Shown in pieces: positions 20,256 to 23,374 of a stretch of DNA of 62,370 nt. The notes below the pieces were generated by a model. That model had not been told where the DNA came from, searched no databases, and saw only the letters and a program-made list of their open reading frames with translations. The position numbers and the translations under genes were made by a program. Origin of the DNA: a virus. The stretch spans positions 1 through 62,370 of IMG/VR virus record IMGVR_UViG_3300023184_000125. One strand, 5' to 3'. Position 1 is the first letter of the stretch. Every line of letters starts with the position of its first letter.

Positions 20256-20611
20256 ATACTCAAGTAGAAAATCCAAATTCAAAGAATATGTCTATATATA
20301 GATATGAAAGATTTTTCACTTTATATGAAGATGAAGATAAATTTAAATTTTATAATTTATTACGGAATATAAATATAATTCCAGCTGATGATACTTCAGT
20401 AGAAGAAGAATATATAGTAAAACCGAAAGATACTTGGCTTTATATATCTTACAAATATTATAATACTATGGATTTGTGGTGGATGGTTTGTGAATATAAT
20501 AATATTGAAGATGCAACAAAATCACCACAAGTGGGAAGTAAGTTAAAATTATTAAAACCGGATTATATTTGGTATATAATTCAAGAATTGAATAGTCAAC
20601 TTAAAAAATAA
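20252..20611 (+). CDS. gp53: baseplate wedge protein gp53 (LysM-like)
   Basis: 119 aa. IYRYERFFTLYEDEDKFKFY, then IVKPKDTWLYISYKYYNTMD and LWWMVCEYNNIEDAT followed by VGSKLKLLKP form the LysM-like unit typical of T4 gp53, which fastens the wedges to each other in the baseplate. ATGA overlap with gp48 shows translational coupling. It is shorter than T4 gp53 (196 aa), keeping mainly the LysM part. The gene converges on a minus-strand ORF 1 nt away. Confidence 0.78.
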   Translation: MNTQVENPNSKNMSIYRYERFFTLYEDEDKFKFYNLLRNINIIPADDTSVEEEYIVKPKDTWLYISYKYYNTMDLWWMVCEYNNIEDATKSPQVGSKLKLLKPDYIWYIIQELNSQLKK

Positions 20612-20612
20612 T

Positions 20613-20999
20613 TTACAGTTCAGAAAATAATTTATTATAATCAAAATAAAATCTTACAAATATTTTTCTACCATTTTTTCGTTTAATTTCACCAAACGTA
20701 TAACAATATATTTTATTTTTATATTTAAAAACAAAACATTTATCCATTGTATTTAAAAAAAAATTTATTTCAAAATCTATTTCCGGTCTTTTAAAAAAGA
20801 ATTTTTCTATTTGATGTTCTGTTAACATATCAAATTTATCATCATTTTTTATACTTTCACAAATTGTTTGTAAAGTATTCCATAATCCTTTTTTATTTAA
20901 AATATCCAATTTATAAATGGGCCATTTAGTTATATAATTATATTGCAAATCTCCATTACCCATTTTTGTAAATTCTTGATATTTATTTGTTTTTTTCAT
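20613..20999 (-). CDS. hypothetical protein within the late block
   Basis: 128 aa, unrecognised. Mixed alpha/beta with aromatic strands (CFVFKYKNKIYCYTFGEI and RKIFVRFYFDYNKL) and a helical N-terminal half. Minus strand, tail to tail with gp53 and head to head with the terminase gene. The 23 bp to the terminase ATG hold the plus-strand late-type box. Single antisense genes of this kind in a late block are often early or middle genes that inserted there. Confidence 0.6.
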   Translation of the reverse strand: MKKTNKYQEFTKMGNGDLQYNYITKWPIYKLDILNKKGLWNTLQTICESIKNDDKFDMLTEHQIEKFFFKRPEIDFEINFFLNTMDKCFVFKYKNKIYCYTFGEIKRKNGRKIFVRFYFDYNKLFSEL

Positions 21000-21006
21000 T
21001 AGGTAT

Positions 21007-21014
21007 TATAAATA
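21007..21014 (+). promoter_or_regulatory. perfect T4 late promoter core TATAAATA before the terminase gene
   Basis: TATAAATA at 21007-21014, identical to the T4 late core bound by gp55. Only 8 nt separate it from the terminase ATG at 21023; T4 geometry would put +1 about 6 nt after the box, making a leaderless or nearly leaderless mRNA. Confidence 0.6.
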
Positions 21015-21022
21015 TTTATAAC

Positions 21023-21442
21023 ATGGGACGTAAGAAAAAAGAGGAAATTGAAAAAATTGATTTATCACATCTCGATACTAAAGATGTCGTAGTTGATGCT
21101 TCATTTTATAAAGGAAATGAAAATTTATTAAAGGGTAATACTCAAATTAAGTGGACCCCCGAAATGATTGATGAATTTGAAAAATGTGCAAAAAATATTT
21201 TACAATTTTCTGAAAATTATTTTTTTATTAATACTATAGATGATGGAAAAAAGAAAATAGAATTATATAAATATCAAAAAAAATTATTAAGAGCGTTTAG
21301 AGATAACCGTTTTAATATTATTTTGAGTTCTCGCCAATCGGGTAAGTGCCTTACATTTAACACTTTAATAAAAATAAAAAACAAAATAACAGGTGAAATA
21401 GAAGAAATTACAATAGGAGAGTTTTATAATAAATTTAATTAA
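21023..21442 (+). CDS. gp17: large terminase N-extein fused to a short N-intein (split gene, first half)
   Basis: 139 aa from ATG 21023 (MGRKKKEEIEKIDLS). Residues 1-108 are the TerL N-terminus and stop exactly inside Walker A: ILSSRQSGK. Residue 109 is Cys, opening a 31-residue N-intein (CLTFNTLIKIKNKITGE then ITIGEFYNKFN) that ends at TAA. Splice block A is clear: Cys1 followed by a TLI strand. TerL is the packaging motor ATPase, cleaving concatemers and pumping DNA into the prohead, and needs an intact P-loop. Alone this half has neither Walker B nor nuclease, so it must act through trans-splicing with the product of 21476-23374. This is not read as a pseudogene because every conserved motif remains. 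Confidence 0.9.
   Translation: MGRKKKEEIEKIDLSHLDTKDVVVDASFYKGNENLLKGNTQIKWTPEMIDEFEKCAKNILQFSENYFFINTIDDGKKKIELYKYQKKLLRAFRDNRFNIILSSRQSGKCLTFNTLIKIKNKITGEIEEITIGEFYNKFN
21347..21439 (+). other. N-terminal half of a split intein in TerL Walker A
   Basis: 31 codons from TGC (Cys1) directly after GGT-AAG of Walker A to the codon before TAA. Block A CLTFNTLI; the ITIGEFY segment corresponds to the strand and helix that usually ends the first intein hairpin. Canonical split inteins break much later, after about 90-100 residues, so this is an atypically early split. Confidence 0.88.
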
Positions 21443-21475
21443 AAACAATTCAAACGTGTTTGGATTTCTTAAAAA
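21443..21475 (+). other. 33-nt gap between the two halves of the split terminase
   Basis: The two ORFs share one frame, separated by TAA (21440), a second in-frame TAA (21470) and 33 nt in total. The +1 frame stays open through the gap, reading KNNSNVFGFLKK, and closes with a TGA (21477-21479) that overlaps the ATG of the second ORF (ATGA). The third frame closes at 21481. There is no endonuclease gene here. Confidence 0.85.
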
Positions 21476-21832
21476 ATGAATAAAAAAGAAAAAATAATAA
21501 AGTCTTATGATATTTCTGATTATGAGATAATGACAGATGATGGTTGGAAGGATATAACTCATGTACATAAAACGATTCCATTTGATATATGGCATTTAGA
21601 AACCGAAAGTGGATTATTTATTGATTGTGCGGACGAACATATCGTTATAGATGAATTTGGAAAGTCTGTATATGTTCAAGATTTAACAATTGGCGATAAG
21701 ATAAAAACAATTAATGGTATAGAAAAAGTAAAACATGTATTCAAAACAGATTCTTTACCAGTAAATATGTATGATGTAACAGTAGATAGTAGTAATCATA
21801 CTTTTTATAGTAATGGTATTCTATCACATAAC
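21476..21832 (+). other. C-terminal half of a split intein in TerL Walker A
   Basis: 119 codons, ATG to AAC (Asn119), immediately followed by ACT (Thr +1). Contains blocks B, F and G and thus most of the splicing fold. The large C-part and tiny N-part match the AceL-TerL type architecture as I recall it (N about 25, C about 104 residues). Confidence 0.88.
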
Positions 21833-23374
21833 ACTACAACGATAACTATTTATGCGTTATGGATTGTTTGTTTTCAGGCGGATAAGAGAATTACTATTGT
21901 TGCTAATAAAGAATCGACAGCAAAAGAAATCTTTTCTAGAATAAGAATGTCGTTTGAAGAACTTCCCGTTTGGATGAAGCCAAGTGTAAAGTCTTGGAGA
22001 AAGGATGGATTTCAATTAGGAAACGATTCTGAAATAAAGGTTAGTACATCTTCTTCATCCGGTCCGAGAGGTAGCACATCAAATCTTTTGATCATTGATG
22101 AAATGGCCCACTGTCCAAATGAGGTTATGCAAGAACTTTGGAAGAGTGCTATTCCGATTATTTCGTCTTCTAAGAAATCTCAAATTGTTGTTATATCTAC
22201 TCCTAACGGAACTGATAATAAATTTTACGAATTATATAAAGAATCACAAAAAGAAAAAAGTTCTTGGCATTTAGAAACTGTTAACTGGGATGATGTTCCA
22301 GGTAGAGATGAAGAATGGAAAAGAGAAACTTTAAGTCTTCTTAATAATAATATAGATGATTTCGAGCAAGAATATTGTAATAGATTCCATGCGCCGGGCA
22401 AAACTGCGATTGATGCTGATCTTTTAAAATCTTTACAAGCCCAATGCAAGGAACCCATATATGTTATGGAAGATGGGGCGTATAAAATATATAATACACC
22501 GTCTCCTGATGGAGTATATGTAGTTGGTGTTGATGTTGGCGAGGGTATAGGTAGAAGTAATACGGTAGCACAAATATTAAATATAGCAGATTTAACTAAA
22601 ATAGAACAAGTGGCTGTATTTGCATCTAATACGATAAGCCCATATCATTTCGGGACTCGTCTAATGGGTATTTTAGAAGACTGGGGTAGACCTCCAGTAT
22701 TAGTTGAAAACAATAACAATGGTCAACAGGTACTCGATGTATTACATCACACTCATAACTATGAAACTATAGTTTCTTATGATATTCAAGGAAGTAAATT
22801 TTATAATAAAGAAAATAGATTAGGTATATATAATCATACAAATACAAAATATAAAGGAGTCGTTAACTTTAGATATTGGTCTAACAGTTTAAATGCCGTA
22901 AAATATAATGATTTAGATACTTTATTAGAATTAGAAACTTTTGTTAAACTTCCTAATTTTACATTTAGTAAAAGAAAAGATACCGATAAAGATGATAGAG
23001 TTATGTCTATGATATGGGCATTATTCATATTAGATCCATCTGTAGCTGAAAAATATTATGCTATCGGTGATATTGATGATCAGGGTCGCCCATTAAAAAT
23101 TACACCATTAAATAATAATTCAGAGTTAATTAAAAAGAGTCCATTATTTGAAGGTAAAACTTCTCAATTTAAAAGAACTACAGCAACCCATAGACCTACA
23201 TATTCTCATGTTGGAAAATTCGATGCGGAAACAGTAAATACAAATACGGAAGATCAAGAAGATTTGATGGTATGGCTTTCTGGGTGGGGTCAAAAACAAA
23301 CACCAAAAAAAGAAGAACGGAAAGATGAAGAAACGGTAAATATAAATGAAACATTTTTTCCAATTGTATTCTAA
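21476..23374 (+). CDS. gp17: C-intein fused to large terminase C-extein (split gene, second half)
   Basis: 632 aa. Residues 1-119 form the C-intein: block B variant IDCADEHIVI (Cys-x3-His like the gp41-1 intein), block F NMYDVTVDSSNHTFYSNG and block G ILSHN with penultimate His and terminal Asn; the +1 residue is Thr. The TerL C-extein starts TTTITIYALW, restoring Walker A as GKTTT. Further TerL motifs: Walker B LLIIDEMAH (about 204-212), STPNG (241-245), and nuclease acidic residues Asp353 (VVGVDVGEG), Glu411 (VLVENNNNG) and Asp506/507 (DKDDRVMSM). Spliced TerL would be 108 plus 513, or 621 aa, near T4 gp17 (610). No LAGLIDADG or HNH domain lies within the intein. Confidence 0.92.
   Translation: MNKKEKIIKSYDISDYEIMTDDGWKDITHVHKTIPFDIWHLETESGLFIDCADEHIVIDEFGKSVYVQDLTIGDKIKTINGIEKVKHVFKTDSLPVNMYDVTVDSSNHTFYSNGILSHNTTTITIYALWIVCFQADKRITIVANKESTAKEIFSRIRMSFEELPVWMKPSVKSWRKDGFQLGNDSEIKVSTSSSSGPRGSTSNLLIIDEMAHCPNEVMQELWKSAIPIISSSKKSQIVVISTPNGTDNKFYELYKESQKEKSSWHLETVNWDDVPGRDEEWKRETLSLLNNNIDDFEQEYCNRFHAPGKTAIDADLLKSLQAQCKEPIYVMEDGAYKIYNTPSPDGVYVVGVDVGEGIGRSNTVAQILNIADLTKIEQVAVFASNTISPYHFGTRLMGILEDWGRPPVLVENNNNGQQVLDVLHHTHNYETIVSYDIQGSKFYNKENRLGIYNHTNTKYKGVVNFRYWSNSLNAVKYNDLDTLLELETFVKLPNFTFSKRKDTDKDDRVMSMIWALFILDPSVAEKYYAIGDIDDQGRPLKITPLNNNSELIKKSPLFEGKTSQFKRTTATHRPTYSHVGKFDAETVNTNTEDQEDLMVWLSGWGQKQTPKKEERKDEETVNINETFFPIVF

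What the first reader, a model, noticed from the sequence alone, without database searches (positions are those of the whole stretch)
21347..21832. Atypically split intein inside the Walker A motif of the large terminase
The first ORF ends TerL at SSRQSGK, then runs 31 residues of intein beginning with Cys. The second ORF starts with 119 intein residues ending LSHN and continues TTTITIYALW, rebuilding GKTTT. Blocks A, B (Cys-x3-His form), F and G are all visible, with penultimate His, terminal Asn and +1 Thr. Inteins in TerL P-loops and naturally split phage inteins are known, and the metagenomic AceL-TerL intein has a similar very short N-part. This one has its own lengths and sequence. Packaging would depend on trans-splicing, since neither half has a full P-loop.
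Basis: partly seen in the sequence, partly recalled or inferred. Interest (0 to 1): 0.95.

Follow-up and report, generated by a model that had tools for sequence, protein, structure and literature searches.

The report
Split terminase intein, endonuclease gene lost
A virus of bacteria makes its DNA-packaging motor as two separate pieces that must stitch themselves together, and a short fossil in the gap shows that a selfish DNA-cutting gene once sat between the pieces and has since been deleted, apparently leaving the virus dependent on the stitching.

Summary
In a T4-like phage fragment from IMG/VR, terL is two ORFs. The first ends SSRQSGK plus a 31-residue intein N-part. The second starts with a 119-residue intein C-part ending LSHN and continues TTT. 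The joined intein is predicted with high confidence to have the HINT fold (pLDDT 91); its best solved match is the VidaL intein.

A close relative (C-exon 98% identical) has the empty site. L008/L009 carry the same split intein with a 454-aa homing-endonuclease gene between the halves; L006 shows the end of that gene joined to the same C-part. The window's 33-nt gap is the 3' end of that gene (36/39 nt), apparently left by a deletion at a 6-nt repeat. The 24 nt upstream of the insertion match L008 (23/24) and no empty allele better than 19/24, as co-conversion during homing would leave. So this is a 'fractured gene' that lost its endonuclease but stayed split.

Among 36 distinct relatives this state recurs, several times with similar scars; others are contiguous, three with an endonuclease overprinted in another frame.

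Trans-splicing itself is inferred, not shown. New variant of a known kind.

The parts
21023..21346 (+). TerL N-exon (108 aa, ends SSRQSGK)
   Evidence: PHROG terminase matches; same junction uninterrupted in L002
21323..21346 (+). Putative co-conversion tract: last 24 nt of the N-exon match L008 23/24, whereas 41 distinct empty alleles match at most 19/24 and close relative L002 10/24; reduced match to L002 extends to about 21307
21347..21439 (+). Intein N-part, 31 aa (CLTFNTLIKIKNKITGEIEEITIGEFYNKFN), stop TAA 21440-21442
   Evidence: 84% identical to L008 IntN, which stops at the same codon; strands and a helix at high confidence in the model
21441..21446 (+). AAAAAC at the deletion junction; the same short repeat lies after the IntN stop (L008) and before the retained endonuclease tail (L006)
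   Evidence: alignments,
21445..21483 (+). Scar of the homing-endonuclease gene: last 12 codons plus stop in the nuclease frame (TIQTCLDFLKNE*), overlapping the IntC start (ATGAATAA)
   Evidence: 36/39 nt identical to the 3' end of the L006 endonuclease ORF; the 33-nt gap aligns with score 51 against a maximum of 30 in 5000 shuffles; corresponds to the last helix of the nuclease model
21476..21832 (+). Intein C-part, 119 aa: blocks B (ADEH), F (MYDVTV..NHTFY) and G (GILSHN)
21833..23374 (+). TerL C-exon (513 aa, starts TTTITIYALW): rest of the ATPase, and the nuclease domain
   Evidence: Pfam Terminase_6N 1.8e-11; 98% identical to L002

Best explanation
It is a naturally split intein at the Walker A K|T site of TerL, and the endonuclease-less remnant of a 'fractured gene'. 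Supported directly by sequence comparison: relatives of the L008/L006 type carry the same split intein with a Vsr-like homing endonuclease gene between its halves; a close relative of this phage has the empty site; and the window keeps only the last 12 codons of the endonuclease gene, joined at a short repeat. Inferred: the element entered by homing with co-conversion of about 24 nt upstream, and the endonuclease gene was deleted before or after that entry. Also inferred: the two ORFs are translated separately from one message, IntN (31 aa) binds IntC (119 aa) to form a HINT fold, Cys1 and Thr+1 carry the acyl shifts and Asn119 cyclises, releasing TerL with an uninterrupted SGKTTT P-loop. Because neither half has a complete Walker A motif, packaging should require this trans-splicing unless another terL lies in an unsequenced part of the genome. 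Without the endonuclease the element should no longer home by itself, and the gene stays split.
For: Anatomy. Empty alleles, including one with a 98% identical C-exon. Same split intein with a 454-aa nuclease between the halves in L008/L009, IntN stop at the same codon; L006 has the nuclease 3' end joined to the same IntC. Scar 36/39 nt, beyond 5000 shuffles. The nuclease tail is conserved in the nuclease family: Cys and Phe of the C-L-x-F motif invariant in 11 of 11. The nuclease model's top PDB match is homing endonuclease I-Bth0305I (probability 1.00, E 0.035, TM by target 0.65). Co-conversion signature. Predicted HINT fold, pLDDT 91.4, low only at residues 34-46 around the split, with intein matches. 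dN/dS below 1 on both halves. Tree groups window and L008 at 100/99. Comparable nuclease-tail remnants in L132, L140, L145 and L117.
Against: Splicing is not demonstrated. Only this record shows the exact junction (near copies of the window may be hidden from that search), so a local assembly fault cannot be fully excluded. IntN is short, with few sites behind its dN/dS of 0.25. Loss of the endonuclease in this lineage cannot be separated from loss in the donor. The upstream co-conversion tract is short and no downstream counterpart is evident. Why the nuclease tail is retained is unexplained: a Shine-Dalgarno role does not fit this phage, whose start sites lack such motifs.
Confidence: 0.88

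Rival explanations
1. The gene is really a contiguous mini-intein and the stops come from sequencing or assembly error.
For: The ORFs are in the same frame; contiguous relatives exist, for example L125, L138, L149 and the Ackermannviridae terminases.
Against: Two separate TAA codons would have to be errors; the IntN stop is at the same codon in L008, which has 1.4 kb with a nuclease gene after it; the gap is nuclease-derived DNA.
Confidence: 0.03
2. A dead remnant: the intein is decaying, TerL is not made from these ORFs and another terminase serves the phage.
For: The record may be a fragment, so another terL cannot be excluded; the endonuclease is gone.
Against: Both halves are open, with the catalytic residues and low dN/dS; the C-exon is under strong constraint (dN/dS 0.035 against L002); no other terL in the 62 kb.
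Confidence: 0.05
3. The 33-nt gap and the tight ORF pair are the ancestral state, and in L008/L006 an endonuclease gene inserted there and recruited the gap as its own 3' end.
For: The nuclease stop overlaps the IntC start, so an inserting gene could have read into existing DNA.
Against: The tail motif is conserved at the C-terminus of the nuclease in 11 diverse members, including nucleases lying in another frame than the intein, and falls in the nuclease domain profile (PF18741 to position 95/96); other loci keep longer nuclease remnants in the same place (L132, L140, L145).
Confidence: 0.06
4. The interruption is removed as RNA (an intron), not as protein.
For: terL of phage ICP1 is spliced as RNA and neighboured by a T5orf172 nuclease gene (PMC10448857).
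Against: No Rfam match at E up to 1 in 20600-22600; the insert codes for a conserved HINT fold with low dN/dS.
Confidence: 0.01

Closest known systems
Fractured genes with split inteins and a Vsr-like endonuclease family (Dassa et al. 2009, NAR 37:2560; reference seen, content from own knowledge, paper not held)
   Same: Conserved phage enzyme broken by a split intein; relatives L008/L009 have a free-standing Vsr-like nuclease gene between the halves.
   Different: Here the nuclease gene has been deleted and only its last 12 codons remain; the host gene is terL at the Walker A site.
AceL-TerL and GOS-TerL split inteins (PMC11766414)
   Same: Naturally and atypically split TerL inteins with short IntN (25 and 37 aa) and long IntC (104 and 115 aa).
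   Different: Cys+1 rather than Thr+1, so a different TerL insertion site; only distant sequence similarity (CatC, a consensus of the two, matches the profile at 5.6e-7).
VidaL atypically split intein (PDB 6vgv)
   Same: Best fold match of the joined halves (E 1.8e-10, TM by target 0.82); short IntN (own knowledge).
   Different: 24% identity over the structural alignment; other host gene (own knowledge).
gp41-1 split intein (PDB 6qaz)
   Same: Best profile match (4.6e-10); cyanophage-like origin.
   Different: Canonically split (long IntN), in the gp41 helicase (own knowledge).
Contiguous TerL P-loop inteins of Ackermannviridae (phages Kevin and Kuja; L094, L095)
   Same: Same K|T site and homologous C-part (39-48% identity).
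   Different: One polypeptide, so splicing in cis; no endonuclease gene inside.
TerL1-a inteins of mycobacteriophages (PMC5050341)
   Different: The term 'split intein' does not occur in that paper; sequences not compared here.

Membership tests
Inteins (HINT protein-splicing domains) | Conserved blocks with Cys/Ser1, block B His, block F Asp/His, C-terminal His-Asn and Cys/Ser/Thr+1 | tested here: met
   Cys1; ADEH; MYDVTV..NHTFY; LSHN|T; invariant columns and alignment; intein_Cterm above cut-off. Pfam Intein_splicing stays below its cut-off (19.9 of 35.8 bits)
Inteins (HINT protein-splicing domains) | HINT fold | tested here: met
   Predicted model pLDDT 91.4, pTM 0.85; PDB intein matches
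Inteins (HINT protein-splicing domains) | Self-excision with ligation of exteins | not testable with these tools
   Needs expression and mass spectrometry
Naturally (atypically) split inteins | Halves on separate ORFs, short IntN, exteins that together make one host protein | tested here: met
   31 + 119 aa with two stops between; precise empty alleles; split conserved in L008
Fractured genes | Free-standing endonuclease gene between the intein halves | tested here: not met
   Only a 39-nt remnant in the window and no homologue found elsewhere in the record; met in L008 and L009, and for the 3' end in L006. Filed as a descendant of that arrangement, not a full member
Vsr-like (I-Bth0305I) homing endonucleases, for the lost gene as seen in L008 | PD-(D/E)XK Vsr-type catalytic domain with a DNA-binding region | tested here: inconclusive
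   PF18741 5e-5, below its curated cut-off, and a C2H2 finger; invariant IEFxGxYWH in the family; top fold match 3r3p at probability 1.00 but E 0.035, on a model of moderate confidence; a relative (L107) has a weak vsr match
AceL-TerL intein | Cys+1 and hence the same insertion site | tested here: not met
   Thr+1 at GK|TTT; AceL-TerL uses Cys+1

The most novel reading that the evidence does not exclude
TerL P-loop inteins show an evolutionary ratchet: a Vsr-like or T5orf172 endonuclease gene enters the intein at one spot and splits it; the endonuclease is later lost repeatedly; but the gene does not easily become whole again, so the phage is left with a lasting dependence on trans-splicing. 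An alternative outcome in related lineages is an endonuclease overprinted in another frame of an intein that stays contiguous.
Probability: 0.5. Interest if true: 0.75.

Novelty: new variant of a known kind. Interest (0 to 1): 0.6.

Why it matters
How naturally split inteins arise and why they persist is an open question. Here the stages sit at one site: empty alleles, a split intein with the endonuclease, a split intein without it but with its scar, and contiguous relatives. That makes the idea that endonuclease invasion breaks a gene, and that its loss leaves the break behind, directly testable. The 31-residue IntN is short enough for chemical synthesis, so the pair is also a candidate protein-labelling tool.

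Tried and rejected
(1) Shine-Dalgarno idea: I suspected that the nuclease tail is kept because it holds the ribosome-binding site of the C-part (TTGGAG before ATG in L132, L140, L145). In the window phage only 4 of 50 start sites have even a weak motif, against about 20% at random positions, so the idea is not supported here. (2) T4-type late promoter: TATAAATA lies at 21007-21014 just upstream of terL, but the motif is not enriched in the window (16 against 26.5 expected), so no weight is put on it. (3) RNA intron: no Rfam match. (4) A displaced copy of the endonuclease in the window: none found. (5) The same junction in other viral contigs: none. (7) Dassa 2009, Stevens 2018 and Thiel 2014 are not held in the library. 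(8) A paper search for overprinted endonucleases in inteins gave nothing on the subject.

Full report
What is there. The window is a 62,370-base virus record with T4-type genes: tail sheath, tail tube, DNA polymerase, DnaB-type helicase, RecA-type recombinase and an SMC-like ATPase. terL consists of two ORFs: N-exon 21023-21346 ending SSRQSGK, intein N-part 21347-21439 (31 aa, Cys1), TAA, 33 nt, intein C-part 21476-21832 (119 aa, ending LSHN), and C-exon 21833-23374 starting TTT. The two ORFs share a frame and are separated by two TAA codons.

It is an intein. The C-part profile matches solved inteins gp41-1, VidaL and CatC. The NCBIfam model of the C-terminal splicing region passes its cut-off; Pfam Intein_splicing does not. 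A model of the joined sequence (stops read as serine for this purpose) has pLDDT 91.4 and pTM 0.85, with low confidence only at residues 34-46, around the split and the scar. Its best solved neighbour is VidaL, E 1.8e-10. The catalytic positions are present and conserved in relatives. dN/dS is 0.08-0.15 for the C-part (against L008 and L006) and 0.25 for the short N-part (against L008).

The insertion is exact. L002, with a C-exon 98% identical, has an uninterrupted SSRQSGKTTT, and 70 of the fetched loci have the uninterrupted site. Four loci carry a different intein-like insert of 1047-1050 nt beginning with Ala at the same site (L007, L032, L047, L079), so the site is a repeated target.

Relatives have an endonuclease gene in the split. 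L008 and L009 have the same N-part, stopping at the same codon, then a 454-aa ORF, then the same C-part, whose ATG overlaps the end of that ORF. L006 shows the end of the ORF joined to the same C-part; the fetched L006 stretch does not reach the N-part. The ORF has a C2H2 finger and a weak match to a PD-(D/E)XK family. The top structural match of its model is the homing endonuclease I-Bth0305I (probability 1.00 but E 0.035; model confidence only moderate).

The window lost it. The 33-nt gap aligns to the 3' end of the L006 nuclease (score 51; best of 5000 shuffles 30), and in the nuclease frame 21445-21483 reads TIQTCLDFLKNE-stop, 36 of 39 nt identical. AAAAAC occurs at both deletion ends in the relatives and once in the window. 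The tail belongs to the nuclease: its Cys and Phe are invariant in 11 diverse members, and it forms the last helix of the model. No other copy of the nuclease was found in the record.

It probably arrived by homing (inference). Window and L002 are mostly 85-100% identical per 20-nt bin around terL, except in the 40 nt before the insertion (22/40). There the last 24 nt match L008 23/24, whereas 41 distinct empty alleles match 9-19 of 24. This is what co-conversion during homing leaves. Whether the nuclease was lost before or after that event cannot be told.

It is not alone. Among 36 distinct TerL P-loop inteins found mainly with the C-part profile, 15 are split with an endonuclease ORF of at least 250 aa between the halves, 3 split with a shorter one, 8 split without one (the window included), and 10 contiguous. 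A few of the 36 are near-copies. The tree needs five changes for the endonuclease-less split state, and well supported branches force at least three. L132, L140 and L145 keep 3' remnants of Vsr-like nucleases, L117 a T5orf172-type tail, and L118 an internally deleted nuclease. L147 and L152 show no clear remnant. The profile search kept the best 80 of more than 500 hits, so the counts describe this sample only. The root, and the direction of changes between contiguous and split, are not established.

How it probably works. Both halves are presumably translated from one message. IntN docks into IntC, the HINT fold forms, and SGK is ligated to TTT. Neither precursor has a complete Walker A motif, so active TerL should require splicing. 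This paragraph is inference from the family.

What is new. Split inteins, TerL inteins at K|T, and fractured genes with Vsr-like nucleases are known (PMC11766414; PMC5050341; Dassa 2009 from own knowledge). The window adds a clear case of a fractured gene that has lost its endonuclease, with empty, endonuclease-bearing and scarred states at one site. Whether such a loss has been described before could not be checked fully, because the original paper is not held.

Limits. One record, no reads, no complete genome, no splicing assay; key original papers were not available.

Noticed in passing
L107 3162-4001; L121 3162-4001; L167 3087-4001: Contiguous TerL P-loop inteins whose middle is also an intact endonuclease-like ORF (279-304 aa; DUF559/MTES_1575 matches in L107 and L167) in another frame. 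The intein frame has no stops across it, against 15-18 on average in synonymous shuffles (0 of 20,000 as low). An endonuclease apparently overprinted on an intein; three loci in two supported clades.
   Followed up: partly
L182 2164-3400: Near relative of L107 in which most of the overprinted endonuclease is absent while the TerL-intein frame stays open.
   Followed up: partly
L099 2577-6853: A TerL with apparently three inteins: split with an endonuclease gene at the P-loop, and contiguous ones at two further sites with +1 Cys (near Walker B, and at EFE|C further on), in the style of AceL-TerL.
   Followed up: no
L123, L133, L153, L156, L170; L146, L148, L173, L175: Homologous intein C-parts followed by sequence that looks like other P-loop ATPases (gp46-like TTIINALSYALYG; DnaB-like TTWLCNLAAK) rather than TerL.
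   Followed up: no
L007, L032, L047, L079: A different intein-like insert of 1047-1050 nt beginning with Ala (ALALDTPIPTPNG...) occupies the same SGK|TTT site in relatives of this phage.
   Followed up: no
L094 1878-2354; L095 1842-2360: TerL of Ackermannviridae (Serratia phage Kevin, Vibrio phage Kuja) contains a contiguous mini-intein at the P-loop; the records annotate only 'terminase large subunit'.
   Followed up: partly
window, 50 start sites: Start sites lack Shine-Dalgarno motifs (4 of 50 against about 20% background), hinting at a host that does not use them, such as Bacteroidota (host is a guess).
   Followed up: no
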